Shown one piece after another: positions 27,455-64,000 of a stretch of DNA of 64,000 bases. Each line of letters begins with the position of its first letter. Position 1 is the stretch's first letter. The notes under the pieces were generated by a model. It saw only the letters and a program-made list of their open reading frames with translations. It was not told where the DNA came from and did no database searches. A program made the translations under genes and the position numbers. The stretch comes from Thermoleophilia bacterium (GTDB lineage: Bacteria > Actinomycetota > Thermoleophilia > Gaiellales > Gaiellaceae), in the NCBI GenBank assembly GCA_023382435.1, contig JAHDVS010000005.1, forward strand, positions 1 to 64,000, in the 5' to 3' direction.

Positions 27455-29785
27455 GTGACGCGACGCAAGCGTCCTACCCAGGCACGCTCACGGGCGGCGT
27501 CCGCGCGCCCGCGTGCGCGCACGGGGAAGGATGCGGGACGCGACCATCAGCATCCCGAGCTGGTCGGGCTCGCACTGCTCGCGCTCGGGCTCTTTCTCGC
27601 CGTCGTCCTCTGGCTCTCCTGGGACGGTGGAATCGTGGGTCGCTTCGCCGACAACGGGCTGCGCGTCCTCGTCGGCGGGACCGCGGCCCTGCTCCCGGCC
27701 GGGCTGCTCGTCGTCGGCGCCCTGCTCGTCGCGCGCAGCCGGCTCGTCGACCTGCGACCGTTCCGTACAGGCCTGCTCGTCCTCGGCCTGTCGCTGCTCG
27801 CCGCGTTCGGCGGCGGGTGCTTCGGCCTCGGTTCCGGCGACCCGCCAGGGGGCTCGCTCGATCCGGACCGGGTGCGCGACTTCGGGGGCGTCCTCGGCGG
27901 CGCCCTGTACGTGGTGCTCGGCAAGCTCCTCGGCGACACCGGCTACACGATCCTTGCTCTCTTCGGTCTGATCGCCGGCGGTCTACTCGTCACCGGCGCC
28001 TCCCTCGGCACGCTCCTTCGCCGTTCCGCCCGCGCGGGCGAGCGTGCGGCGCGCCATACCGCCCGCGCTGCACGCCGCACCGTCGAGGTCGTCCAGTCCG
28101 CGTCGCTGCCCCGACCCGCAACCGTTCGGAGTGCCCCGATCGACGGCGTCGCCCGCTACGGCGACGTGGTCGGAGCGGCCGAGGCGTCCCGACCTTCCGT
28201 GCTCGTCGATCAGCTCGCCGAGCCGGACGCGGGCACGGGGGGCATCCCGGAGATCCCGCTCGAGGATCTCCCGGAGGAGCCGCCTCCCGGCGAGGACACG
28301 CAGGAGCGCCTGTTCGCGCCTCCCGCCGCCGTCAGCGACTACCGTCTCCCGGACGCATCCGTCCTGCGACGGTCGCGCCCCACGAAGAGCGAGTCCGGGC
28401 GGGCGGCGGAGCGTACGGCCGAGACGCTCGTTCAGACGCTCGCCCACTTCGGGATCGAGGCCACGGTGATCGGCCAGGTCTCGGGCCCTCGCGTCACGCG
28501 CTACGAGCTCCGGCTGGCGCCCGGTACCAAGGTGTCAAAGGTGTCGGCGTTGAAGGACGATCTCGCCTATGCGCTCGCCACGACCGAGATCCGGATCCTC
28601 GCGCCGATCCCCGGTAAGCAGGCGGTCGGGGTGGAAGTACCGAACGTCTCCCCGAACATCGTCACGCTCGGCGACATCTTCGCCGACCTCCCCGGGGCCG
28701 CGAGCCCGCTCTCCGTGTGGCTCGGCAAGGACATCTCCGGCGCTGCTGTCTGGGCTGATCTCGCCCGCATGCCCCACATCCTGATCGCCGGTACGACCGG
28801 CTCCGGCAAGTCCGGCTGCATCAACACGATGCTGTGCTCGATTCTCCTGCGATCCACGCCGGACGAGGTGCGCATGATCATGATCGATCCCAAGCGCGTC
28901 GAGCTCGGGCTCTACGAGTCGATTCCGCACCTGCTCACGCCGGTCGTCTCGAGTCCCAAGCGGGCGTCCGCGGTTCTCCTGAACGTGGTCGAGGAGATGG
29001 AGCGCCGCTACGAGCGCATGAGCGTCGCCCGGGCCCGCAATCTGCCGGAGCTGAACCGCGTGCTGGCGAAGAGAGGCGAGCCGACGCTCCCGTATCTGCT
29101 CGTCGTGATCGACGAGCTCGCCGATCTGATGATGGTCTCGCCGCAGGAGGTCGAGGACACCGTGATCAGGCTCGCGCAGAAGTCGCGCGCGGTCGGCATC
29201 CACCTCGTTCTCGCGACCCAGCGGCCGTCCGTCGACGTGATCACCGGCATGATCAAGGCGAACGTACCGTCGCGGATCGCATTCGCGGTCTCGAGCCAGA
29301 CGGATAGCCGGGTGATCCTCGACACGTCAGGAGCGGAGGCGCTCCTCGGGCAGGGGGACATGCTGTTCAAGCCGCTCGGGACGTCCAGGCTCCAGCGCGT
29401 TCAGGGCGCGTACGTATGCGAGGAGGAGATCGCGCTCGTCGTCGAGCAGTGCCGTCGCCAGCGGGCGCAGGAGCTGGACGAGTCGCTGCTCGAGCCGCCG
29501 GAGGGCGCGCGCGCGAGCAGCGAGAGCGAGGACGATCTCGACCCGGACGAGGATCCGCTGCTGGAGCGGGCGATCGAGATCGTGGTGCAGACGCAGACCG
29601 CCTCCGTCTCGCTGATCCAGCGACGGCTCCGGGTCGGCTACACGAGAGCCGGGCGGCTGGTGGACATGCTCGAGCGCCGCGGCGTGATCTCCGGATACGA
29701 GGGCTCGAAGCCGCGGCGTGTGCTGGTCGGCGAGCACGAGCTGGACCGGGCGCTCGCGTCGCTGCGAGAGCGTGTTCCAGGCTAG
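27455..29785 (+). CDS. ftsK: DNA translocase FtsK/SpoIIIE
   Basis: FtsK pumps chromosome ends through the division septum and activates XerCD at dif. The 776-residue protein has an arginine-rich start, four to five membrane helices (about 32-190), a linker, and the motor with Walker A GTTGSGKSG (~447), Walker B LLVVIDELADLMM and DLARMPHILIAG. A C-terminal gamma winged-helix follows (from ~705, TASVSLIQRRLRVGYTRAGR). The start is GTG 27455 after a GGAGGGGGGAG-like run about 25 bases upstream. The dif-like site at 49109 would be its natural partner. Confidence 0.95.
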   Translation: MTRRKRPTQARSRAASARPRARTGKDAGRDHQHPELVGLALLALGLFLAVVLWLSWDGGIVGRFADNGLRVLVGGTAALLPAGLLVVGALLVARSRLVDLRPFRTGLLVLGLSLLAAFGGGCFGLGSGDPPGGSLDPDRVRDFGGVLGGALYVVLGKLLGDTGYTILALFGLIAGGLLVTGASLGTLLRRSARAGERAARHTARAARRTVEVVQSASLPRPATVRSAPIDGVARYGDVVGAAEASRPSVLVDQLAEPDAGTGGIPEIPLEDLPEEPPPGEDTQERLFAPPAAVSDYRLPDASVLRRSRPTKSESGRAAERTAETLVQTLAHFGIEATVIGQVSGPRVTRYELRLAPGTKVSKVSALKDDLAYALATTEIRILAPIPGKQAVGVEVPNVSPNIVTLGDIFADLPGAASPLSVWLGKDISGAAVWADLARMPHILIAGTTGSGKSGCINTMLCSILLRSTPDEVRMIMIDPKRVELGLYESIPHLLTPVVSSPKRASAVLLNVVEEMERRYERMSVARARNLPELNRVLAKRGEPTLPYLLVVIDELADLMMVSPQEVEDTVIRLAQKSRAVGIHLVLATQRPSVDVITGMIKANVPSRIAFAVSSQTDSRVILDTSGAEALLGQGDMLFKPLGTSRLQRVQGAYVCEEEIALVVEQCRRQRAQELDESLLEPPEGARASSESEDDLDPDEDPLLERAIEIVVQTQTASVSLIQRRLRVGYTRAGRLVDMLERRGVISGYEGSKPRRVLVGEHELDRALASLRERVPG

Positions 29786-32225: not shown

Positions 32226-32782
32226 GCGTGGCTGCTAGCGTCGACGACGATGATCGTCTGCGCCTGTTCTTCGCCTTTCCGCTGCCCGCGCGCGAGGCGG
32301 AGGCACTGGCGGCGTGGGCTTTCGGTGCGCTCCGCGGTGCTCACCACGTTCGCGTGCTCCCGGCGGAGCAGCTCCACATCACGCTCGCGTTCCTGGGGAG
32401 CCGGGCGGCCACGGAGCTCCCCGCGCTTCGCGACGCGCTTCGCATCGTCGCGGAGGGGGCGAGGCGACCGGTGCTGACCCCGTGCCGCTACCGGGAGACC
32501 CAGCGCGTCGGCATGGTCGCCTTCGATGACGACGGTGGCCGCGCGGGCGCCCTCCAGGAGCGCCTCTCGCGCGAGCTCGTGGCGATCGGCAGCTACCGGC
32601 CCGAGCGGCGGTCGTGGCTCCCACACGTGACCGTGGCCCGTTTCCGGCTCCGCCCGGGCCTGCGTGCCAATCCGCCCGCGCTCGGGGCTGTCAGTCCGTC
32701 CGAAGCGGCCCTCTATCATTCGGTGCTGCGGCCTGGCGGGGCGCAGTACCAGATCGTTGAAGCGGCTGCCCTAGGAGGTTGA
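32222..32782 (+). CDS. thpR: RNA 2',3'-cyclic phosphodiesterase (ThpR/LigT)
   Basis: This 186-residue 2H phosphoesterase hydrolyses 2',3'-cyclic phosphate ends to 2'-phosphates. Both HxT/S motifs are present: HITLAFLG and HVTVARF. The start is GTG 32222, overlapping the cinA stop, with GTG 32228 as an alternative. Its stop overlaps the recA ATG (TGATG), so the three genes appear translationally coupled. Confidence 0.9.
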
Positions 32783-33846
32783 TGTTGGACCGCCAGCAAG
32801 CTCTCACCGCCGCTCTCGGCCAGATCGAGCGGCAGTACGGCAAGGGATCGGTCATGCGGATGTCCGATCAGGCGAACGAGGCCATCCCGGCTGTCTCGAC
32901 CGGGTGCCTGTCTCTCGATCTCGCCCTCGGGATCGGAGGCCTGCCACGAGGCCGGATCGTCGAGATCTTCGGCCCGGAAGCGTCCGGCAAGACGACGCTC
33001 GTCTACCACGTGATCGCCGAGGCCCAGCGGCTCGGCGGCATCTGCGCGTTCATCGACGCCGAGCATGCGATGGATCCCGCGTACGCCCGGCGCATCGGCG
33101 TCAACATCGACGACCTGCTGGTCTCCCAGCCCGACAACGGCGAGCAGGCGCTCGAGATCGCGGAGCTGCTCGTACGCAGCGGTGCCGTGGACATCGTCGC
33201 CATCGACTCGGTCGCGGCCCTCACTCCCAAGGCGGAGATCGAGGGCGAGATGGGGGATAGCTTCGTCGGGCTCCAGGCCCGGCTGATGAGCCAGGCGCTG
33301 CGCAAGCTCGCCGGCACGCTCAACCGCACGGGCACCGTGTGTATCTTCACGAACCAGCTGCGGGAGAAGATCGGCGTCATGTTCGGGAGCCCCGAGACGA
33401 CCACCGGCGGGCGGGCGCTGAAGTTCTACGCCTCGATCCGACTCGACGTGCGCCGGATCGAGACGCTCAAGGAGGGTGTCGAGGCGATCGGCAACCGCAC
33501 CCGCGTCAAGGTCGTGAAGAACAAGGTGGCGCCGCCGTTCAAGCAGGCGGAGTTCGACATCATCTATGGCGAGGGCATCTCCTGGGAGGGTTCGATCCTC
33601 GATGTCGGCCTCGACCAGAAGCTCGTGCAGAAGTCGGGCTCCTACTTCAGCTTCGGGGAGGAGAGGCTCGGCCAGGGGCGCCAGAACTCGATCGCGTTCC
33701 TCCGCGAGCACCCCGACGTCTCCGACGCCATCGTGCGCAGGATCCAGGAGGAGGCGGCCGGCAGGGTCGTCTCGACCCGGCTCGCTGCCGCCGGGGCCGC
33801 GCCCGCCGCGCAGACGGCCGTCGAAGAGGTGGCCGAGGTCGCGTAG
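32782..33846 (+). CDS. recA: Recombinase RecA
   Basis: RecA drives strand exchange and induces the SOS response. The 354-residue protein has [18 protein letters not shown], Walker [10 protein letters not shown] (~65), Walker [21 protein letters not shown] and the L2 region [27 protein letters not shown] (32772-32778) is only 3 bases before ATG 32782 and 6 before TTG 32785, so the TTG is a possible true start. No SOS box is obvious just upstream, consistent with cotranscription from cinA. Confidence 0.97.
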
Positions 33847-42277: not shown

Positions 42278-43588
42278 GTGACGCAGCACCAGCCCGACCC
42301 CGCCCCGGGCGCGGAGCCCGAGCGGGGCTTCCTCGTCGCGGTGATCGCGCCCGAGACCGACGAGGAAGAAGAGCTGGCCGAGGCCCGCGAGCTCCTGCGC
42401 ACAGCGGGGGTGGTGATCGTCGGCGAGGTCGTGCAGCGCCGCCCGCGGCCCGACCCGCGCACGTACGTCGGCAAGGGCAAGCTCGAGGAGCTGAAGGCAC
42501 TGATCCCCGAGACCCGCGCCGAGTCCCTGATCGTCGACGACGAGGTCGACCCGAGCCTCCAGCGCCGCCTCGAGGACGCTCTCGGGATCCGCATCGTCGA
42601 TCGCACCCAGCTCATCCTCGACATCTTCGCGCAGCATGCACGCACCGCCGAGGGCAAGCTCCAGGTCGAGCTCGCACAGCTCGAATACAACCTCCCGCGC
42701 ATGCGCGGGATGTGGAAGCATCTGGAGCGTCTCGGCGGCGGCATCGGCACGCGCGGCCCCGGCGAGTCGCAGCTCGAGACCGATCGGCGGCTCGCCCGGC
42801 GCCGCGTCGCGCTCCTGCGCCAGCGGTCACGCGCGCTCGAGCGCCAGCGTGACACCCAGCGCGTCGCCCGCAAGCGGGCCGACACGCCCCTGGTCGCGCT
42901 CGCCGGCTACACGAACGCGGGCAAGTCCACGCTTCTGAACGCGCTCACGGACGCGTCCGTCTCGGTCGACGACCGCCTGTTCGAGACGCTCGACCCGACG
43001 ACCAGGGCGTTCGAGCACGACGGCCGGCGTTACCTCGTCACCGACACGGTCGGCTTCATCAGACGCCTGCCCCACCAGCTCGTGCAGGGGTTCGCGGCCA
43101 CGCTCGAGGAGACGCTGGGGGCCGACCTCGTCGTCCACGTCGCCGACGCGTCCGGGTCCGACCATCGCCTGGTCGAGCAGCTCGCAGCGGTCGAGAGCGT
43201 GCTCGCGGAGATCGGTGCCGCCGACATGCCGCGGGAGCTCGTCCTCAACAAGGTCGACCTGCTCGACCCGCTCGCGCGCCGGCGCCTGCGCAACCGCTTC
43301 CCGGACGCTGCCATGATCTCCGCGCGAAGCGGGGAGGGGCTCGACCTCCTCCGCGAGCGAATCGCGACGCGCTTCGCCGAGCGTTTCGAGCTCGTGCGGC
43401 TTCTGATCCCGCACACGGACGGCGCCCGGCTCGCCGAGCTCTACAGCCTCGGGGCCCCGATCGAGGAACGCCACGACACCCCGGAAGGCGTGCTCGTGCT
43501 TGCGCGCCTGCCCCGGCCGGACTTGCCCCGGTACGCGCGCTACCTCGTGGCGGAGGCGGCGGTTCCGCCCGCCCGGCTCAGCCGGTGA
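42278..43588 (+). CDS. hflX: GTPase HflX
   Basis: HflX is a ribosome-associated GTPase that splits stalled or hibernating 70S ribosomes. The 436-residue protein has the HflX N-terminal domain ([40 protein letters not shown]), the GERMP/GGRGPGE-type linker [17 protein letters not shown] and the G domain ([37 protein letters not shown]). The start is GTG 42278. Its stop overlaps dut by 4 bases. Confidence 0.94.
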
Positions 43589-46842: not shown

Positions 46843-47808
46843 GTGGCACATCGCCCGCTTCTCGACCCGAGCGACGCCGGTGCGGACGAGCCGGAGCCGC
46901 GCCTTGCGCTCGTCGCCGGCGGGGCAGAGGTCGCGAGCGACGACGACGACGAGAGCGCGACCGCCGAGCCCGCCGGGGCCGGCGAAACGCAGGATCCGCT
47001 CAAGCTGTACGTGCGCCAGATCGGAGACGGTCCGCTCCTGACAGCGGCCGAGGAGCGGGAGCTCGCGCGCCGCAAGGACGAGGGCGACGAGGACGCGAAG
47101 CGCCGCCTGATCGAGTCGAACCTGCGCCTCGTGATGTCGATCGCGCGCCCCTACATGAACTCGGGCGTGCCCCTGCTCGACCTGATCCAGGAGGGAAACC
47201 TCGGGCTGATCCGCGCGGTCGAGAAGTTCGACTACCGTCGGGGCTTCAAGGTCTCCACGTACGCGACCTGGTGGATCCGCCAGGCGGTCGCCCGCGCGAT
47301 CGCCGATCAGGGTCGGACGATCCGCCTTCCGATCCATGTCGTCGACCAGATGCGCAGGGCGCAGAAGGCGCGCCGCGTGCTCGCCCAGACGCTCGTGCGC
47401 GATCCGACGCCCGAGGAGATCGCGGCGCGGGCCGGCCTCGAGCCGGAGCGCGTGACGCAACTGCTCGAGCTGATCGAGCAGCCCGTCAGCCTCGAGACCC
47501 CGGTCGGTGACGGCGACTCGATGTACGCCGACCTGATCGAGGATCGCAACGCTCCGCTGCCCGAGGCCGTCACCGCCGAGCATCTGCGCGAGGAGGAGGT
47601 CAAGGAGGCGCTCGGCACGCTCAGCGACCGCATGCGCCAGGTCGTCGAGCTCCGATACGGGCTCGCGGGGGACAAGCCCCGCTCGCTCGAGGAGGTCGGC
47701 AGGGTCCTGGGGGTCACGCGCGAGCGCGTGCGCCAGCTCGAGGCGAGCGCGTTTCGCGAGCTCCAGCATGAAGCGCCCGGGTTGAAGCTGTACCTGAGAG
47801 CGGAGTGA
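46843..47808 (+). CDS. RpoD-family sigma factor (secondary, lacking region 1.1)
   Basis: The 321-residue sigma-70 protein has an acidic variable head (1-~50), region 1.2 ([20 protein letters not shown]), region 2 with [20 protein letters not shown] and [20 protein letters not shown], region 3, and region 4 ([20 protein letters not shown]). It lacks the sigma-1.1 helical domain seen in its neighbour. It resembles group 2 or HrdB-like paralogues. The start is GTG 46843, with a GATGAT box about 7 bases upstream. It is convergent with the second sigma gene, with 18 bases between stops. Confidence 0.9.
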
Positions 47809-47826
47809 GATCGGCCGCCGGCCCGG

Positions 47827-48909
47827 TCAGGCCGTCGCGACGCCGTCGATCTCGCGCAGCGACGCGAGCCTGTTCAGCGACTCCACCTCGATCTGCCTCA
47901 CACGCTCGCGGGTCATGCCGAGCCGCTTGCCGATCTGCTCGAGCGTGTGAGGCTCGTAGCCGCGTAGGCCGTAGCGGAACTCGAGCACGCGGCGGTCTCG
48001 TGCGGGCAGCGCCTCCAGGGCCCGCTCGAGCGCCTCGTTGCGCAACCGACGCTCCGCCTCCTCCTCGGGCAGGGGCCCGTTGCCGGGCACGAGGTCACCG
48101 AAGACGGCGTCCTCGTCCTCACCGATCGGTTGATCGAGGCTCGTCGACGTTCGCGCAGCCGCCCTCACCTCGATTGCCTGCTGGAGCGGCAAGCCGGCCT
48201 CCTCGGCGATCTCCGCGAGCGTCGGCTCGCGGGCGAGCTGCATCCAGAGACGCCGCTCGGCCTGGTGCATCTTCTGCATCCGCTCGACGACGTGGACGGG
48301 CATGCGGATCGTCCGCGCCTTGTCGGCGACGGCTCGCTGGACGGCCTGGCGGATCCACCAGGTCGCGTACGTCGAGAACTTCAGGCCGCGCTGCCATTCG
48401 AACTTCTCGACCGCCCTGATCAGGCCGAACATGCCCTCCTGGATCAGGTCGAGGAACGGCAGGCCCTGATTGCGGTAGTTCTTCGCGATCGAGACGACCA
48501 GACGGAGATTCGACTCGATCATCCGCTGCTTGGCCGCGAGGTCGCCGCGCTCGATCCGCTTGGCCAGGTCGACCTCGTCCGCGGCGGTGAGGAGAGGATG
48601 ACGGCCGATCTCCCGCAGAAACAGCTGGAGTGCGTCCGTCGTCGTCTCCACGCCGGCCTCGAACGAGTCCTGCGCCTTCGAGGGCGTCGTCGCCTCCACC
48701 GGCTCGGCGGTCTCGCGCCGGTCGACGACCTCGATGCCTCGATCCTCGAGCTCCCGCAGCAGCGCCTCGATGTCCTGCACGTCGAACTCGACGTGCTCGA
48801 GCGCCTCCAGGAGCTCGGTCCGATCGACCACGCCGGTCGCCTCCGCGGCCTCGAGCAGCAGGTGAAGCTCCTCGGTCTGCGGGAACTGGATCGTTGTCTC
48901 TTCGGCCAT
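47827..48909 (-). CDS. rpoD: Principal RNA polymerase sigma factor RpoD/SigA
   Basis: The 360-residue protein has an N-terminal region 1.1-like domain ([40 protein letters not shown]), region 1.2 ([20 protein letters not shown]), region 2 ([40 protein letters not shown]), region 3 and region 4 ([20 protein letters not shown]). Region 1.1 and the match to primary-sigma signatures make it the likely housekeeping factor. ATG 48909 is preferred to GTG 48927; AGAGAA precedes it. Confidence 0.92.
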
Positions 48910-49108
48910 GGGTTCTCTTTCTCTCACATCGACATGGCAGCGCGCAAGCCACCGGGGCGGCGCGATGTGCGCCGCGGGCCCCGGACTCGACCGCCACTCA
49001 CCTTAGCAGGGGCCACCGCGCTTGAACACCCCGCGATCGAGCCGCCACCGACCCGGCGGATCGCGTAGGCTGGGGCCCCTGCCCATGCCCGGCTCTCCCT
49101 CGACTCCC

Positions 49109-49136
49109 ACGCACGATAACCCGCGTTATGTCAAGC
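49109..49136 (+). other. dif: dif-like XerCD recombination site
   Basis: A 28-base site of XerCD layout lies here: left arm ACGCACGATAA (49109-49119), 6-base centre CCCGCG (49120-49125), right arm TTATGTCAAGC (49126-49136). The right arm fits the XerD half of actinobacterial dif sites as I know them (TTATGTCAAGT), and GATAA/TTATG give the inner partial symmetry. It is intergenic, and the main gene direction flips around it. XerC/XerD are not in the window; the partner FtsK is at 27455. Confidence 0.7.
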
Positions 49137-49265: not shown

Positions 49266-50462
49266 GTGTCTGACGATCCGCCTGTCTATCCCGGTCGGAT
49301 CGATCCGGGTGAGCGCTTCCGCGACCGGCGTCGCCGCGCGAGGCGCCGCAGAGGGCTACGGCGCCTCGCCGTGGTCGTCCTCGTGCTCGGCGGCACCGTC
49401 GCCCTCGTCCTGAATGCCCGGCTCATCTCGGGTGACGACGAGACCCCGCCGCAGCCGGCGGCGACGAGCTCCTCCGCCACGGCGGAGACGGCCATGTCCG
49501 CATCCGAGCCCAGCCGGCTGCCCGCCGAGATCCGCGGCGTCCACGTGACGATGCCGCTCATGACGATCGACGGCAAGCTGGATGAGTACCTCGCGCTGGC
49601 AGACGAGGGCATGACCGCGATCCAGCTCGATGTCAAGGACGAGAACGGCGAGATCGGCCTCAGCTCCCCGAACGTGCCGCTTGCCCGCAAGGTCGGCGCG
49701 GTCCAGGGCTACTACAACGGCAGCGCGGTCGCCCGCCAGGTGCACGGCGCCGGCCTCTACCTGATCGGTCGCATCGTCGTGTTCGAGGACCCGCGGCTCG
49801 CAGCCGGGAGCCCGGAGCTCGCGATTCAGAGCCGCGACGGCGGGATCTGGAACAGCCAGGGGCTCGGCTGGGCGAACCCCTACGACGAGCGCGTCTGGGA
49901 GTACAACGTCGATATCGCCGTCGCTGCGGCACGCGCTGGCTTCGACGAGATCATGTTCGACTACATGCGCTTCCCGAGCGACGGCGATCTCGCCGACATC
50001 GTCTATCCGGTGCGGACGAACGAGCCCAAGTGGCGGGTGATCGCGAGCTTCGCCGAGTACGCCCGGGAGCGTCTCGAGCCGCTCGGCGTGCGCGTCTCTG
50101 CGGCCGTGTTCGGCCTCGCCGCGACGCGTGACCTCGGCATCGGTCAGCGACCGCGCGCGCTCGCGAAACACCTCGATACGATTTACCCGATGGTCTATCC
50201 CTCCCACTACGGCTCGGGCGAGTACAACCTCGCCGACCCCTCGAGCCAGCCGGGCGTCACCGTCAGCTACTCCCTCCTCGACTTCAAGCGCGAGTTGGAC
50301 GGCACGACGACGAGGATCGTTCCGTGGCTCCAGGATTTCTACGGCTACACGCTCGAGCAGGTGGCGCTCCAGGTGGATGCGGCTCGCAGGGCACGCACCG
50401 CGGGTTACCTGCTCTGGAACCCCAACAGCGTGTATACAGCCGGCGCGCTCGCGCCCCGGTAG
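49266..50462 (+). CDS. Membrane-anchored putative glycoside hydrolase (DUF4015)
   Basis: The 398-residue protein has an arginine-rich cytoplasmic head, one membrane helix (LAVVVLVLGGTVALVLNARL, ~33-52), a Ser/Thr linker and a DUF4015 TIM-barrel domain from ~88 (IRGVHVTMPLMTIDGKLDEY, AIQLDVKDENGEIGL, FDEIMFDYMRFPSDG, YPMVYPSHYGSGEY). DUF4015 is annotated as a putative glycosidase; the conserved acidic residues in LDVKDENG and FDYMRFP are candidates for catalysis. The substrate is probably a wall or surface glycan, by inference. The start is GTG 49266. Confidence 0.82.
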   Translation: MSDDPPVYPGRIDPGERFRDRRRRARRRRGLRRLAVVVLVLGGTVALVLNARLISGDDETPPQPAATSSSATAETAMSASEPSRLPAEIRGVHVTMPLMTIDGKLDEYLALADEGMTAIQLDVKDENGEIGLSSPNVPLARKVGAVQGYYNGSAVARQVHGAGLYLIGRIVVFEDPRLAAGSPELAIQSRDGGIWNSQGLGWANPYDERVWEYNVDIAVAAARAGFDEIMFDYMRFPSDGDLADIVYPVRTNEPKWRVIASFAEYARERLEPLGVRVSAAVFGLAATRDLGIGQRPRALAKHLDTIYPMVYPSHYGSGEYNLADPSSQPGVTVSYSLLDFKRELDGTTTRIVPWLQDFYGYTLEQVALQVDAARRARTAGYLLWNPNSVYTAGALAPR

Positions 50463-51297: not shown

Positions 51298-51819
51298 TCA
51301 GTCGTACGTGACGGCGGAGAAGACGTCGTACCCGGCGAGTTTCGAGCGGCCCTCGAGGAACGCCAGCTCGACGAGGAAGGCGACGCCGACGACGACACCG
51401 CCCAGGCGCTCGGCAAGGTCGACCTTCGCCTTCGCGGTGCCTCCCGTGGCAAGCAGGTCATCGTGGACGAGGACGCGCGTCCCGGGCGAGATCGCGTCGT
51501 CGTGCAACTCGAGCGTGTCGGCGCCGTACTCGAGCGCGTACCCCGCCGAGACCGTGCTCCACGGCAGCTTCCCGGGCTTGCGGGCCGCGACGAAGCCGAT
51601 GCCCAACCGGTAGGCGAGCGCCCCGCCGAGGATGAAGCCGCGCGCTTCCGCGCCGAGCACGACATCGGGTCGGCGCGGCTCGGCGAACTGGGCGAGCCGC
51701 TCCACGGCCTCGTGGAGCGCCTCAGGGTCGGCGAGGAGCGGCATCACGTCCTTGAACACGATCCCGGGCCGCGGGAAGTCCGGGATCTCCCGGATTCGCT
51801 CTCTGAGATCGACCGTCAC
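51298..51819 (-). CDS. apt: Adenine phosphoribosyltransferase
   Basis: Apt salvages adenine to AMP using PRPP. The 173-residue protein has IREIPDFPRPGIVFKDVMPL, VLGAEARGFILGGALAYRLG and the PRPP loop VLVHDDLLATGGTAKA. The start is GTG 51819, overlapping the upstream MerR-type gene by 4 bases, so it is the last gene of the rsiG-like/garA-like/ftsR-like operon. Its purine role has no clear link to those regulators. Confidence 0.92.
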   Translation of the reverse strand: MTVDLRERIREIPDFPRPGIVFKDVMPLLADPEALHEAVERLAQFAEPRRPDVVLGAEARGFILGGALAYRLGIGFVAARKPGKLPWSTVSAGYALEYGADTLELHDDAISPGTRVLVHDDLLATGGTAKAKVDLAERLGGVVVGVAFLVELAFLEGRSKLAGYDVFSAVTYD

Positions 51820-52523
51820 GGGCGCGCCAGGGAGCGAACCGCGCGCCAGAACAGGAGCTGGGACAGCTCGAGCGAAAGACCCGCGAGCGTCTCCAGATCG
51901 TCGAGACCGGCCTGGCGGCGCTCCGGGTTGCGGGAGCGAAGCGCCGGAGCGACGACGTTCGTGAGGTCGGCGACGGCGTTGTCGGCGCCCCGACGCAGCT
52001 TCTGCAGGTTCCGTGGAGCGATCCCGTACCGGGCGAGCCGCGCGCATGCCGCCGCGATGTCCGCGTCGGTCTCCGGGTAGAGCCGGCCGCCGCTCACGTG
52101 TCGCTCGGGCTCGATCAGGTCGAACGCCTCGAGCTCGTCGACGAAGCCTGGCTCAACGCCCGCACGTTCGCACAGCTCTTCGAGCCCGACCAGGGGCACC
52201 TCGAGCCGGGAGCGGATCCCCGTGCGCGGGATCCCCTTCTTGCGCGCGCGCTTGCCGCGTCCCGGCGCCGTCAGCTCGTCGCGGATCACCCGCAAGGGCA
52301 GGAACTCGTCTCGCTGCATGCGGAGGATCGCACGGAGCTGCTCGACGTCGGCCTCCGCGAAGAGTCGGTAGCCACCCCGCGTCCGTCGCGGCGTGAGCAG
52401 CCCCTGATCCTCCAGGTAGCGGATCTTCGAGATCGAGATCTCCGGGAACTCCTCGCTGAGCCGGCGGCAGACTGCGCCGATCGTCAGCGGCCGCTCCTCC
52501 TTGGTGACGGAAGCGCTCGCCAT
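51816..52523 (-). CDS. ftsR: MerR-family regulator, FtsR-like (Rv1828 type)
   Basis: The 235-residue protein has an N-terminal MerR HTH (LTIGAVCRRLSEEFPEISIS, KIRYLEDQGLLTPRRTRGGY, RLFAEADVEQLRAILRMQRD) and a long helical C-terminal region with FDLIEPERHVSGGRLYPETD, typical of the actinobacterial Rv1828/FtsR group. FtsR in Corynebacterium activates ftsZ. Its adjacency to an FHA protein mirrors the garA-Rv1828 pair in mycobacteria and supports the call. No effector-binding cysteines are evident. Confidence 0.8.
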   Translation of the reverse strand: MASASVTKEERPLTIGAVCRRLSEEFPEISISKIRYLEDQGLLTPRRTRGGYRLFAEADVEQLRAILRMQRDEFLPLRVIRDELTAPGRGKRARKKGIPRTGIRSRLEVPLVGLEELCERAGVEPGFVDELEAFDLIEPERHVSGGRLYPETDADIAAACARLARYGIAPRNLQKLRRGADNAVADLTNVVAPALRSRNPERRQAGLDDLETLAGLSLELSQLLFWRAVRSLARP

Positions 52524-53337: not shown

Positions 53338-55878
53338 TCAACCTCGACTTGAGGGTTCTGCTCGAGCGGCCGGGTGCTCCTCCCCCGCGAGAACCTCCTC
53401 TACCATGCCGCGAAGCTCGGCGCCGAGACGCTCGGCTTCCACCTCCGTATCGCCCTCGGCGTAGAGGTGCACGATCGGCTCGCTCGCGTCGGGGATCACC
53501 TGCGCCCAGCCGCGCTCGTCGAAGACCTTGATGCCGTCGAGAAGATCCGTCCGGCGATCCTTCAGGCGCTCGGTCAGCACGCGCATCACGGTGCCCTTGA
53601 GCGCCCACGGGCAGCGCAGCTCACGGTGGATGACCGTTGGGCGAGGCAGCCCGGCGACCAGCTCGGACAGGGGCCGGGCGACGGGAGCGAGCAGCTCGAG
53701 CAGGTTCGCGAGGCTTGCGACCGCGTCGTAGGCGGGCAGGAAACCCGGGAACACGAAGCCTCCCGTGGCGGCGCCGGCTAACACCGTCCCTTCCACGGTC
53801 GAGGCGCGCGTGAGCGCGGCCAGGGACGCCTGCGTCCGCCGCACGGTGAGGCCCGTACCGTCCAGGAGTTGCTCGGCCAGGTTGGTCGTGGTCACGGGGA
53901 GGGCGACCGAGCCCCGGGCGCCGTCGCTCCCGAGCAGCGACACGAACAGGAGCAGGGCCTGCTCGACCGGGACCTCGTTGGCCTGCTCGTCGACCAGGTA
54001 CAGCCGCTCGGCCGCCTGGTCCATGGCGACGCCGAGGTCGGCTCCGAGAGCCGCGACCAGCCGCTTCGCCTGCTGGAGGGAATCGTCGCGGGCGTCCACC
54101 GCGGCGGCGATCGCTCCGCGTCCGGCGACGTGGGCATGAACCGAGATCGCCTCGACGCCAAGCTCCCCCAGGATCAGCGGCAGGATCAGCGACGCCGACG
54201 AGTGGCAGTAGTCGACGGCGATGCGAAACCGCCGACTCCGGATCCTCTCGACGTCGAGCGTCAGCAGGAGATCCGCCGCGTAGCTCTCTGCCGCGCGCGA
54301 CGGGTACGTCAGCTCTCCGAGGTCGGCGAACGAGGCCCGGCGGAACTCCTGGCGCGAGAAGTGCTTGTCGATCTCCTTCTCGAGCTCGGGGGTGAGCTCG
54401 ATCCCCGGGGGCTCGAAGATCTGGATCTGCACCGCCTCCGGGTCGCTGCTGCTGGGCCGGACGTGCACGCCGGCGCTGGGCCTGGCGGTCTTGAGGGCGT
54501 GCCTGTTCACGGCGGCGGGCATCACCCGGAGGTCTTCGACGTGGATGCCGGCCGAGATGATCCCGGCGATCAGAGCGCGCTTGAGCAGGCGGCAGGCGGG
54601 CTGCGGGGCGCGGCTGGCCACGACCGTGGTGCCCCGGTCGAGCGCGGTTCCGAGCGCCATCCCGAGCCGGAGGGCGATCTCCGGGGTGAGGTCGACGTTG
54701 ACGAGCCCGGTCACGGCGGCACCCCCGCGCAGGCGCGAAGCCGCCCGCGCCTCCCAGATCAGGTTGCGGTCGACGAGTGTGCCCGCCTCGACCTCCTTGA
54801 AGGGGTAGATGCGCACGCCGGGCATGACCACGCTCTCCCGCCCGAGCGTGCATTCGTCTCCGACAGCCGCCCCCTCCTGCACGCGGGCGTGGCTTCGCAC
54901 GTCGCACGAGCGCCCGATGATCGCCCCCTCGACGAGGGCGCTGCGACCCACGTACGTCCTGGCATCGATGATCGATCGTGTGACGACCGCGTGCTCGCGG
55001 AGCGTGACGCCGTTGCCCAGCACCGCGTACGGGCCGACGCGGGCGTCCGCGGAGATGCGGCAGTGATTGCCGATGAAGGCGGGGCCCTCCACCCGCTCGA
55101 TCTCCTCCAGCTCGACCCCGTCCCCGAGCCAGATGTTGCCGCGCAGCCGCATCCCCGGGATGGTCACGCGCACTCGCTCGTCGAGGACGTCGAAGTTCGC
55201 CTGGCTGAACTGATCGAGATTGCCGATGTCCTGCCAGTAGCCCTCCAGCGCAAGGCCGTAGAGCGGGCGACCCATCTCGAGCAGGAGCGGGAACAGCTCC
55301 CGGGAGAAGTCATAGGGGCGGTCGATCGGGACGTGGCGGAGTACCTCGGGCTCGAGCACGTAGATCCCGGTGTTGATCGTGTCGGAGAAGACCTGGCCCC
55401 ACGATGGCTTCTCCAGGAACCGTTCGACGCGTCCCTTCTCGTCCGTGACGACGATTCCGAACTCGAGCGGGTTGTCGACGCTCTTCAGGCCGATCGTCAC
55501 GCATGCCTGCCGCTCGCGGTGAAAACGGACCAGCTCGGACAGGTCGACGTCGCAGAGCGCGTCCCCGGAGATGACGAGAAAGGTGCCGTCGAGCTCGTCG
55601 GCGGCGAGTCGCACCGAGCCGGCGGTGCCGGCCGGCGACTCCTCCACGGAGTACCGGATCTCGACTCCGTGGCTCTCCCCGTCCCCGAAGTAGCTCCGGA
55701 TCGCCTGGGGCATGAACGCTGCCGTGACGATGATCTCGTTGAATCCGTGCTCTCTCAGGAGCCCGACGATGTGCTCCATGCACGGCCGCCCGACGATCGG
55801 CACCATCGGCTTCGGCTGGTTCGACGTCAGCGGGCGAAGACGCGTGCCCTCGCCACCGGCCATGACGACCGCCTTCAC
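53338..55878 (-). CDS. Sugar-phosphate nucleotidyltransferase fused to a degenerate phosphomannomutase
   Basis: The 846-residue protein has a nucleotidyltransferase domain ([20 protein letters not shown] at 4-23, [31 protein letters not shown]), hexapeptide beta-helix repeats (~250-370) and a phosphohexomutase-like part (~385-830). In the mutase part the catalytic TASHNP loop reads HVRPSSSDP, so the phosphoserine site is altered. Such fusions are annotated as mannose-1-phosphate guanylyltransferases. It probably makes GDP-mannose or a related NDP-sugar. The start is GTG 55878, overlapping the pgsA-like stop. Confidence 0.85.
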
Positions 55879-60096: not shown

Positions 60097-60405
60097 TCAT
60101 TCACCGCCGCGCTCGGCGAGCTGGCGGAAGAGCCGATCGACGAGCTCGGGCATCTCCTCGAGACGCTCGGTGATGACGCGGATCCGGTACTCGCGGAAAT
60201 ACTCAGGCTCCACCCCGAGCGCGCGGGCGAGCCCGGCGATCACCTCGTTCGAGGGCACCGGACGGTTTCCGTGCACGAGATGGTTGAGGTAGCCGGCGGA
60301 CAGACCTGTCGCAACCGCCAGGCCGCGGTACGTCAGGCCGCACTCCTCCATCAGAGCGGTGACCGTCTCCCCGAAGGGAGCTTCGCTGAAGAGCCGTCGT
60401 TTCAT
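60097..60405 (-). CDS. XRE-family HTH protein
   Basis: The 102-residue protein has a Cro/C1-type HTH (VTALMEECGLTYRGLAVATG, LSAGYLNHLVHGNRPVPSNE) followed by a helical end (YFREYRIRVITERLEEMPEL). Similar proteins precede or follow housekeeping genes in this lineage with no known regulon. The start overlaps the proS stop by 4 bases, so the two are cotranscribed. This is unlike a toxin-antitoxin arrangement. Confidence 0.78.
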   Translation of the reverse strand: MKRRLFSEAPFGETVTALMEECGLTYRGLAVATGLSAGYLNHLVHGNRPVPSNEVIAGLARALGVEPEYFREYRIRVITERLEEMPELVDRLFRQLAERGGE

Positions 60406-62093
60406 CGGAGCGTCTCGAGCATGCTGCGGAGCAGCTGGGCCGCCTGGATCGCGGGGACGCGCTCCTCCGCTCGGGTACCCCGCGCGAGCACGTCCATGCC
60501 GCCGTCCTCGAGCGTCTTCTTGCCGACCGTGACGCGCAGCGGGCAGCCGATCAGGTCGGCGTCCGCGAACTTCTCGCCGGGGCGCCGGTCGCGGTCGTCG
60601 AAGAGGACGCGCAGCCCGGCCCGCTCGAGCTCCCCGGCCACCGTCTCGGCGACACCCACGGCTTCGGGGCCCGCTGCCCCGATCGCGACCACGTGCACGT
60701 CGTACGGCGCCAGCGCGGGTGGCCAGGCGATCCCGGCATCGTCATGGCGCTGCTCGACCGCCGCGGCCATGATCCGGCCCGGCCCGATGCCGTAGGAGCC
60801 CATCACGAGCGGGCGCTCGCTGCCGTCCTCGTCGGTGTAGAGCGCCTCGAGTGGCCTCGAGTAGCGGGTGCCGAGCTTGAAGATGTGGCCGATCTCGATC
60901 GCCACCTGGAAGCGCAGCGCACCGCCGCAGCGCGCGCACGTGTCGCCCGCGCGCGGCTCGCGCAGCTCGGCGAAGCGTGGCGTGTAGTCCCGGCCCGCCT
61001 CGACGCCGCGCAGGTGGTGGCCGGTGCGGTTCGCACCGGCCACGTACTGGCCCCGGCGCAGCGTCTCGTCGGCGACGATCGGGCCCGTGAACCCGACGGG
61101 CCCGATCGAGCCCGGCTCGGCGCCGAAGCCGGCGCGGATCTCGTCCTCCGTTGCGGGCCGGACGTCCGCCCCGAGCGCAGCCGCCGCGCGGGCCTCGTCG
61201 AGGCGGTCGTCACCGCGCACGAGCAGCAGCACGAGCTCGCTGCCGGCGACGACCATCGGCATCGCCTTCGCGGTCGCTGCGGGGTCGATCCCGAGGAAGC
61301 CCGCGAGCGCCTCGATCGTCGAGATCCCCGGTGTCTCGACCTCCGCGGGCGAGTCGAGCAGCTCTGGAAGCGACGGTGCCGCGGGAAGGCCCCGGGCGAC
61401 CTCGAGATCCGCCGCGTAGTCGCAGGAGCCGCAGGTGACGAGCGTGTTCTCCCCGGCGCCGGCGGGCGCGAGGAAGTCGACCGACTCGCTGCCGCCCATC
61501 ATCCCCGACTCCGCCTGCACCGCTCGGAACTCGAGCCCGCAACGCTCGAAGATCCGGTGGTAGGCCCGCTCGTGCAGGCGGAAGCTTCGCTCGAGACCCT
61601 CCTCGTCCCGATCGAACGAGTACGAGTCCTTCATGATGAACTCGCGGACACGCAGGAGACCGCCGCGGGGGCGCGGCTCGTCCCGGTCCTTCGTCGAGAA
61701 GTGGTAGAGGACCTGTGGCAGCTCCCGGTAGCTGCGCAGCTCCCGCGCGTGGAACGTGAACGTCTCCTCGTGTGTCATCGGCAGGACGAACGGGCGACCG
61801 GCCCGATCCTCGAGCCGGAACACCTCCGGGATCTCGTAGCGCCCGGTGCGCTGCCACAGCTCGGCCGGCGTCAGCACCGGGCAGAGCATCTCCTGGCCGC
61901 CGATCGCGTCCATCTCCTCGCGGATGATCTGCACCACACGCTGGTGGACACGCCAGCCGAGCGGCAAAAACGTGTACAGCCCCGCGCCGGTCGCCCGGAT
62001 GAAGCCGCCGCGCAGGAGCAGGCGGTGACTCGTCGCCTCGGCTTCGCTCGGGTCGTCCCGGAGCGTCGGAATGAAGAGCAGGGACGCCCGCAC
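60402..62093 (-). CDS. proS: Prolyl-tRNA synthetase
   Basis: ProS charges tRNA-Pro. The 563-residue bacterial-type class II enzyme has motif 1 near TFLPLGWRVHQRVVQIIREE, motif 2 (FHARELRSYRELPQVLYHFS, RVREFIMKDSYSFD), the YbaK-like editing insertion (about 225-385, STIEALAGFLGIDPAATAKA), motif 3 (SYGIGPGRIMAAAVEQ) and the anticodon domain. The start is GTG 62093, six bases after ispG. Its cognate tRNA-Pro(GGG) lies 4 kb away. Confidence 0.95.
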   Translation of the reverse strand: MRASLLFIPTLRDDPSEAEATSHRLLLRGGFIRATGAGLYTFLPLGWRVHQRVVQIIREEMDAIGGQEMLCPVLTPAELWQRTGRYEIPEVFRLEDRAGRPFVLPMTHEETFTFHARELRSYRELPQVLYHFSTKDRDEPRPRGGLLRVREFIMKDSYSFDRDEEGLERSFRLHERAYHRIFERCGLEFRAVQAESGMMGGSESVDFLAPAGAGENTLVTCGSCDYAADLEVARGLPAAPSLPELLDSPAEVETPGISTIEALAGFLGIDPAATAKAMPMVVAGSELVLLLVRGDDRLDEARAAAALGADVRPATEDEIRAGFGAEPGSIGPVGFTGPIVADETLRRGQYVAGANRTGHHLRGVEAGRDYTPRFAELREPRAGDTCARCGGALRFQVAIEIGHIFKLGTRYSRPLEALYTDEDGSERPLVMGSYGIGPGRIMAAAVEQRHDDAGIAWPPALAPYDVHVVAIGAAGPEAVGVAETVAGELERAGLRVLFDDRDRRPGEKFADADLIGCPLRVTVGKKTLEDGGMDVLARGTRAEERVPAIQAAQLLRSMLETLR

Positions 62094-62098
62094 GGCGT

Positions 62099-63256
62099 CT
62101 ATGCGAGTTGCGTCTCGGGCGCGGGTGCGACCGGCCGCTGGGCCGCCTCGGCCATCAGCGCGGCCGCGGGCTTCGCGAGCTTCCGCCGCTCCGGCCGCGG
62201 CATGCCCCCGGCGATCCAGCGGTCGATCTCCGCGAACAGCTCGTCGATCAGCGCCGCGGACGGAACCTTCCTGAGCACGCGCCCGTGGGCGTAGACGAAG
62301 CCGACATCGCGGCCGCCGGCGATCCCGAAGTCGGCGTCGCCGGCCTCCCCGGGCCCGTTCACGGCGCAGCCCATGACCGCGACCTCGAACGCCTCCGGGT
62401 ACGCCTTCAGACGCTCCGCGACCGCTTCCGCAAGCCGTTCCACGCCGACGTTGTCGCGCCCGCACGAAGGGCACGAGATCATCACAGGCCCGCGCTCGCG
62501 CAGTCCGAGCGACTTCAGGATGTCGAAGGCGACCTCGATCTCCTTGACCGGGTCGGCGGTCAGCGAGACCCGCACCGTGTCGCCGATCCCGTCCATCAGG
62601 AGCGTGCCGAGCCCGATCGCGCTCTTGATCGTGCCGGTGCCGGGTGGGCCGGCCTCGGTCACGCCGAGATGCAGCGGGTAGGGCACCTTCGCGGACAGCA
62701 TCCGGTAGGCGCGGATCATCGTCGGAACCGAGCTCGACTTGACCGAGATCGCGAAATCCCGGTAGTCGAGGGACTCGAGCAGGCGCACCTGCTCGAGCGC
62801 CTCCTCGACCAGCGCCGCGGCGGTGTCCTCCTGCGCGAGCGGGATCAGGTGCGTCGGCAGCGAGCCGGAGTTCGCCCCGATCCGCATCGGGATCCCCTTC
62901 GCCTTCGCCGCCTGGACGACCTCGGCCGTCTTCTCCGGCCCGCCGATGTTTCCGGGGTTGATCCGGACCTTCGCCACGCCGGCATCGATCGCGCGCAGTG
63001 CCAGGGAGGCGTTGAAATGGATGTCCGCGACGATCGGCAGCGGGCTCAGGTAGACGAGCTTCGGAAGCGCGTCGGCGTCCTCGGCCTTCGGAACGGCGAC
63101 GCGGACGATCTCGCAGCCGGCCGACGCCAGCCGTCCGATCTGCTCGATCGTGGCGTCCACGTCGTGCGTGTACGTGAGCGTCATCGACTGGACGGCGACG
63201 GGGGCCCCGCCGCCAACCGGCACGCCGCCGACAGAGATCTGGACCTGGCTCGCCAC
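62099..63256 (-). CDS. ispG: 4-Hydroxy-3-methylbut-2-enyl-diphosphate synthase
   Basis: IspG is a [4Fe-4S] enzyme of the MEP isoprenoid pathway. The 385-residue protein has a TIM-barrel N-terminus (VQSMTLTYTHDVDATIEQIG, VRINPGNIGGPEKTAEVV) and the cluster ligands in ISCPSCGRDNVG and VMGCAVNGPGEAGDADFGIA. The start is GTG 63256. The ispG-rseP order (usually preceded by dxr) is common, which suggests that dxr lies just past the window edge. Confidence 0.95.
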   Translation of the reverse strand: MASQVQISVGGVPVGGGAPVAVQSMTLTYTHDVDATIEQIGRLASAGCEIVRVAVPKAEDADALPKLVYLSPLPIVADIHFNASLALRAIDAGVAKVRINPGNIGGPEKTAEVVQAAKAKGIPMRIGANSGSLPTHLIPLAQEDTAAALVEEALEQVRLLESLDYRDFAISVKSSSVPTMIRAYRMLSAKVPYPLHLGVTEAGPPGTGTIKSAIGLGTLLMDGIGDTVRVSLTADPVKEIEVAFDILKSLGLRERGPVMISCPSCGRDNVGVERLAEAVAERLKAYPEAFEVAVMGCAVNGPGEAGDADFGIAGGRDVGFVYAHGRVLRKVPSAALIDELFAEIDRWIAGGMPRPERRKLAKPAAALMAEAAQRPVAPAPETQLA

Positions 63257-63277
63257 TGGATCGCAGTCTACCGAGGG

Positions 63278-64000
63278 CTATCCGCCGCGCAGCCGCTCGA
63301 TGTCGTTCGAGAGGCCGATGAAGAACAGGAGCAGCACGAGCGCGATCCCGATCATCGACGCCCGCTCGTACGCCTCCCTGGGGATCGCGCGGCCGCGCAC
63401 CTTCTCGGCGATCGAGAACGCGATGTGGCCGCCGTCGAGCGGCAAGAGCGGCAGCAGGTTCAGCAGCGCAAGCGAGAGCGAGATCAGGGCCAGAACTCCG
63501 AGGTAGTAGCGAAACCCCGCCTCGACGACCTGGGAGGACTGGTCGACGATCCCGACCGCGCTCGACACCTCGCCGCGAGCGGAGCCGGTCACGATCCCAC
63601 CAAGGGCCTTGCCGATCGCGACCGTTACCTCACCCGTCTGCTCGAACGCCTTCACGATCGCCTCGCCCGGCGGATAGCTGCGCTCGTAGGGCGTCGGAAC
63701 GAACCCGATGCGGTAACGCCCGTCGATCTCCTCCGCCTCGATCGGGCCGAGTGTCAGCTCCGAGCCGTCGCGCAGGACTGTGACGGTGATCGGGCGACCC
63801 TCGCTCGCGCGGATCGTGTCGGAGATCGCCTGGAACCGGTCGGTGGCGACTCCGTCCACGGCGACGATCACGTCGCCCTGGCGCAGCCCCGCCGCCGCGG
63901 CCGGCGTCGCCGGAAGCACCTCCTCGACGGCTCGCGTCGCGCCGGCGACGACGCCGAGGGAGAACACGACCGCTAGCATCGCCACGCAGAACACGAGGTT
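63278..64000 (-). CDS. rseP: Site-2 intramembrane metalloprotease RseP (C-terminal part; runs off the window)
   Basis: Only the C-terminal ~240 residues are present. They contain a membrane helix, a PDZ domain (VLPATPAAAAGLRQGDVIVA, VDGVATDRFQAISDTIRASE), a central domain and the second zinc-site segment LNLLPLLPLDGGHIAF followed by two helices. The HExxH helix must lie beyond base 64000, where the frame is still open (NLVFCVAML). RseP cleaves anti-sigma factors or signal peptides inside the membrane. Confidence 0.88.
   Translation of the reverse strand, partial: NLVFCVAMLAVVFSLGVVAGATRAVEEVLPATPAAAAGLRQGDVIVAVDGVATDRFQAISDTIRASEGRPITVTVLRDGSELTLGPIEAEEIDGRYRIGFVPTPYERSYPPGEAIVKAFEQTGEVTVAIGKALGGIVTGSARGEVSSAVGIVDQSSQVVEAGFRYYLGVLALISLSLALLNLLPLLPLDGGHIAFSIAEKVRGRAIPREAYERASMIGIALVLLLFFIGLSNDIERLRGG

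What the first reader, a model, noticed from the sequence alone, without database searches (positions are those of the whole stretch)
49109..49136. dif-like XerCD site at a strand-bias switch: probable replication terminus
Seen: an XerC-type arm ACGCACGATAA, 6-base centre CCCGCG and XerD-type arm TTATGTCAAGC in an intergenic region. From 3.4 to 47.8 kb most genes run rightward, and from 51 to 64 kb nearly all run leftward, so both sets point at this site. Known: dif sites lie where the replichores meet, and FtsK with XerCD resolves dimers there. Inferred: the window spans the terminus. That would place the rimP-nusA-infB, rpsO, pnp, recA and ftsK genes unusually close to it, contrary to the common origin-proximal placement of translation genes.
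Basis: partly seen in the sequence, partly recalled or inferred. Interest (0 to 1): 0.72.

Follow-up and report, generated by a model that had tools for sequence, protein, structure and literature searches.

The report
Chromosome dimer-resolution site at replication terminus
The 28-letter sequence is a genuine dif site, the place where a soil actinobacterium's replication forks meet and joined sister chromosomes are separated; the kind is textbook, but its fixed position beside the same housekeeping genes in most families examined of its order is worth noting.

Summary
Window 49109-49136 reads ACGCACGATAA-CCCGCG-TTATGTCAAGC and is the only match in the 2.73-Mb genome with fewer than three mismatches to the dif core. 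Across 39 distinct family sites it is a 28-bp conserved island in otherwise diverged intergenic DNA. Genes switch strand there (44:7 rightward on the left, 52:12 leftward on the right; Fisher p=1.4e-13). Cumulative GC skew of the 111-kb contig peaks within 10 kb of it. In a single-contig relative the genome-wide cumulative skew maximum falls at dif, with dnaA roughly opposite; a second near-complete relative mostly agrees. FtsK with a gamma domain and a tandem pair of Xer-type recombinases are present. So this is a dif site and the window spans the terminus. Beyond the finding: in the family the XerC arm always faces hflX/sigB/sigA and the XerD arm always faces apt-merR-NTP-transferase/PMM; parts of this layout persist elsewhere in the class, with one family an exception. 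recA lies 15-18 kb from dif in three genera, and the single detected 16S rRNA gene is on the terminus side in both relatives. The gene-placement surprise is real but mild and has precedent. New member of a known kind.

The parts
49109..49136 (+). dif site: XerC arm ACGCACGATAA (49109-49119), centre CCCGCG (49120-49125), XerD arm TTATGTCAAGC (49126-49136)
47827..48912 (-). sigma-70 factor with regions 1.1-4 (sigA-like); on the XerC-arm side of dif in every family locus where it was found
46843..47808 (+). second sigma-70 factor (regions 1.2-4), convergent with the former; on the XerC-arm side in relatives
49266..50462 (+). DUF4015 putative glycosyl hydrolase; first gene on the XerD-arm side, also in some relatives
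51298..51819 (-). phosphoribosyltransferase (apt-like); first gene of the conserved XerD-side set apt-merR-NTP/PMM
51816..52523 (-). MerR-type regulator
53338..55878 (-). nucleotidyltransferase-phosphomannomutase fusion
27455..29785 (+). FtsK with alpha, motor and gamma domains (gamma is the DNA-orienting and XerD-activating domain in E. coli)
32782..33846 (+). recA, 15-18 kb from dif in three genera
42278..43588 (+). hflX, last widely conserved gene of the rimP-nusA-infB...recA...miaB-miaA-dapF-hflX block that runs toward dif
60402..64000 (-). proS, ispG and rseP, part of the block that runs leftward toward dif
   Evidence: names by family resemblance and order

Best explanation
This is the chromosomal dif site of a Thermoleophilia actinobacterium, and it lies at the replication terminus. 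When recombination joins sister chromosomes into a dimer, FtsK pumps DNA at the septum until the terminus region is reached, its gamma domain activates XerD at the right arm, and XerC completes the exchange at the left arm, separating the two copies. Shown by sequence: the site, its uniqueness, conservation and polarity, the switch of gene strand and skew, and the presence of FtsK-gamma and two Xer-type genes. Inferred from E. coli: binding, catalysis and control by FtsK.
For: Unique 0-mismatch match in the genome. 75 of 81 genomes (own plus 80 relatives) have a match at up to 2 mismatches, though some of those outside the family are not dif. In 39 distinct family sites conservation begins at position 1 and nearly ends at 28; positions not imposed by the search pattern are also fixed (G3 0.92, C4 1.00, A5 0.97, G17 0.97, G27 1.00, T28 0.92), while flanks are near background except a G at +30. 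Strand switch p = 1.4e-13. G018 (one contig, 2.62 Mb): dnaA at 56 kb, dif at 1500 kb, sampled cumulative GC skew highest in the samples at 1441-1510 kb and lowest near the origin, arms differ with p = 6e-7. G043 (3.28-Mb contig): dnaA at 1983 kb, dif at 498 kb, arms differ with p = 0.003. FtsK gamma domain E = 1.7e-26. Tandem Xer-type recombinases in the own genome and both relatives.
Against: GC skew is weak (about 1%) and the home-contig maximum is 10 kb from dif. In G043 the sampled cumulative curve has a slightly higher point near 1.0 Mb than at dif. The own genome is in 79 contigs, so the ori-dif distance was measured only in relatives. E. coli and B. subtilis FtsK-orienting motifs are not significantly oriented here, so the orienting sequence is unknown. 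The Xer proteins fall below the curated XerC and XerD equivalog cut-offs, although the second passes the Xer subfamily cut-off.
Confidence: 0.96

Rival explanations
1. A chance or regulatory palindrome (operator of the divergent sigma and DUF4015 genes) that resembles dif.
For: It lies between divergent genes. In family f4 a similar-looking match is a nearly perfect inverted repeat (TGTNNGATAA-N6-TTATCTCACA), more like an operator.
Against: The site keeps dif's asymmetry and polarity (TTATGTCAAG on one side only) in relatives where the adjacent genes differ or lie 5-7 kb away, and it sits at the genome-wide skew maximum of G018.
Confidence: 0.02
2. A mobile-element attachment site derived from dif (phage or other element using host Xer), with the working dif elsewhere.
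For: A phage contig carries a very similar 28-mer, ACGCACGATAATAGGTGTTATGTCAAGT.
Against: Only one copy in the genome. Neighbouring genes are syntenic housekeeping genes across genera. No element with a second dif copy was seen beside it.
Confidence: 0.02

Closest known systems
E. coli dif / XerCD-FtsK
   Same: 28-bp layout 11-6-11, XerD arm beginning TTATGT, terminus position, FtsK with gamma domain, two Xer-type recombinases
   Different: xer genes are adjacent here (separate in E. coli, own knowledge); GC-rich centre CCCGCG; FtsK-orienting motif not identified
Actinobacterial dif sites predicted by Kono et al. 2011 (PMC3025954)
   Same: Same phylum; that paper predicts dif in 66 of 66 single-chromosome actinobacterial genomes and reports that dif positions correlate with GC-skew shift points over bacteria as a whole
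   Different: Conexibacter and Rubrobacter are not named in its text, and no paper in the library holds both Thermoleophilia and 'dif site'

Membership tests
dif (XerCD chromosome dimer-resolution site) | 28-bp 11-6-11 sequence with conserved XerC and XerD half-sites | tested here: met
dif (XerCD chromosome dimer-resolution site) | single copy per chromosome | tested here: met
   (genome 96% complete, 79 contigs)
dif (XerCD chromosome dimer-resolution site) | located at the replication terminus / skew shift point | tested here: met
   on the contig; in two relatives
dif (XerCD chromosome dimer-resolution site) | genome encodes XerC- and XerD-type recombinases | tested here: met
   tandem pair; best models are Xer subfamily, XerC and XerD, with scores below the equivalog cut-offs
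dif (XerCD chromosome dimer-resolution site) | FtsK translocase with gamma domain | tested here: met
dif (XerCD chromosome dimer-resolution site) | polar FtsK-orienting motifs converge on it | tested here: inconclusive
   GGGNAGGG and GAGAAGGG not significant; skewed octamers such as CAAGGAGG are confounded with ribosome-binding sites
dif (XerCD chromosome dimer-resolution site) | XerC/XerD bind and recombine it | not testable with these tools
   needs biochemistry

The most novel reading that the evidence does not exclude
In Thermoleophilia the terminus is held in place over deep evolutionary time: dif stays beside the same housekeeping genes with fixed polarity over much of an order and partly the class, inversions around dif move blocks across it but leave them pointing at it, and growth genes (recA block, single rRNA gene) are kept on the terminus side, the reverse of the origin-proximal pattern of fast growers.
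Probability: 0.4. Interest if true: 0.5.

Novelty: new member of a known kind. Interest (0 to 1): 0.35.

Why it matters
It gives a dif consensus (RYGCACGATAAY-N3-YGTTATGTCAAGT) and a terminus anchor for a mostly uncultured soil lineage, so replichores can be assigned even in fragmented genomes. The fixed terminus neighbourhood makes it possible to test whether gene dosage matters for gene placement in slow growers.

Tried and rejected
Known FtsK-orienting motifs showed no significant orientation. Family f4 matches rejected as dif (operator-like inverted repeat); recurring f3 matches such as GATAATCATGATTATGGGAA are not dif-like in the XerD arm. Extra 2-7 kb between sigA and dif in some relatives: in L043 the only Pfam hit in the one frame scanned is an ABC-transporter permease, and no second dif was found there, so there is no sign of a dif-integrated element. 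Literature search for Thermoleophilia with 'dif site' found no paper. dif near the PMM-fusion gene outside Thermoleophilia: only two cases with weaker left arms (L214, L217), left open.

Full report
The site. Window 49109-49136 is ACGCACGATAA CCCGCG TTATGTCAAGC exactly as described. It sits between a sigma-factor gene starting at 48912 on the minus strand and a DUF4015 gene starting at 49266 (or possibly 49371) on the plus strand. The core GATAAN6TTATGTCAA occurs once in the genome without mismatch; the other places have three mismatches. The window is bases 1-64000 of a 111-kb contig of a 2.73-Mb, 79-contig assembly that is 96% complete. The closest relatives found with a neighbouring gene are Thermoleophilia MAGs, among them Candidatus Gaiellasilicea, so the genome most likely belongs to Gaiellales (the order name is my inference).

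Conservation. Of 81 genomes (own plus 80 relatives), 75 have a match at up to two mismatches; most in the family are dif-like, several outside it are not. Thirty-nine distinct sites including this one, aligned without gaps, show a sharply bounded island: information is near background up to position 0, high from 1 to 28 except in the centre, and low again from 29 apart from a G at +30. Ten of the eleven XerD-arm positions are invariant. Part of this is imposed by the search pattern, but positions 3, 4, 5, 17, 27 and 28 were free and are 92-100% conserved.

Terminus. On the home contig genes point at the site from both sides (44:7 and 52:12, p = 1.4e-13) and cumulative GC skew peaks 10 kb left of it. 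The own genome is fragmented, so I used two relatives. G018 is one contig of 2,622,036 bases. Forty 20-kb samples plus the dif stretch give a cumulative skew that rises from the origin to 1.44-1.51 Mb and falls after it; dif is at 1,500,076 and dnaA at 56 kb (arms 55:45). G043 (contig of 3,282,754 bases) has dif at 497,555 and dnaA at 1,983 kb (arms about 45:55), with skew of opposite mean sign on the two arms (p = 0.003), though its curve is noisier and a little higher near 1.0 Mb than at dif.

Machinery. FtsK in the window has alpha, motor and gamma domains. Two tyrosine recombinases are encoded in tandem in the own genome and lie next to each other in both relatives. The second scores best with the general Xer subfamily model (above cut-off) and then XerD; the first is nearly tied between XerC and XerD; neither reaches the equivalog cut-offs. 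Which is XerC and which XerD is therefore inference.

Position. In the family, wherever flanks were long enough, hflX, sigB and sigA are on the XerC-arm side (7, 20 and 26 loci) and apt, merR and the NTP-transferase/PMM fusion on the XerD-arm side (22, 21 and 16 loci), each with unchanged orientation and no counter-example. Family f2 keeps the layout but with apt reversed and no sigA seen there. Elsewhere in the class L121, L123, L169 and L178 keep one or both sides. L171 has the same XerD side continuing into hflX-dapF-miaA, with proS on the other side, which equals the Gaiellales order after one inversion beside dif. More distant relatives (L177, L179, L215) have miaA-dapF-hflX-NTP/PMM in one run, so I infer that an ancestrally continuous block was split by inversions around the terminus. 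One family (f3, L053) has dif in a different neighbourhood, so the lock is not absolute.

Translation genes. infB is 34 kb from dif here, 52 kb in G043 and 259 kb in G018; recA is 15, 18 and 18 kb away. The only 16S rRNA gene detected lies 147 kb from dif in G043 and 379 kb in G018, in both on the terminus side of the middle of its replichore; the rplB locus lies mid-replichore. That fits relaxed dosage selection in slow growers (background from the abstracts of PMC2797632 and PMC4395360). From general knowledge, the nusA-infB-recA block is also in the terminus half of B. subtilis and the single rRNA operon of M. tuberculosis is well away from its origin, so this is notable but not unprecedented.

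Verdict. An ordinary, well-supported dif site and terminus in an under-studied lineage.

Noticed in passing
L233:10228-10255 (IMGVR_UViG_3300046683_000386): A 35.5-kb phage contig with terminase genes carries a 28-mer ACGCACGATAATAGGTGTTATGTCAAGT, nearly the Thermoleophilia dif consensus; a candidate phage that integrates at dif using host Xer.
   Followed up: partly
G018:C1:1119236-1120785 and G043:C1:644859-646408: Only one 16S rRNA gene was detected in each, and it is on the terminus side of the middle of the replichore.
   Followed up: partly
window 46843-48912: Two convergent sigma-70 genes next to dif are conserved in the family; neither reaches the curated RpoD cut-offs.
   Followed up: no
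G000 C15:28839-30171 (L143, L145): xerC- and xerD-like genes are adjacent and almost overlapping; the two best integrase matches are also adjacent in G018 and G043.
   Followed up: partly
L124:9999 and L125:9999: Family f4 has a conserved nearly perfect inverted repeat TGTNNGATAA-N6-TTATCTCACA that mimics dif but looks like an operator.
   Followed up: no
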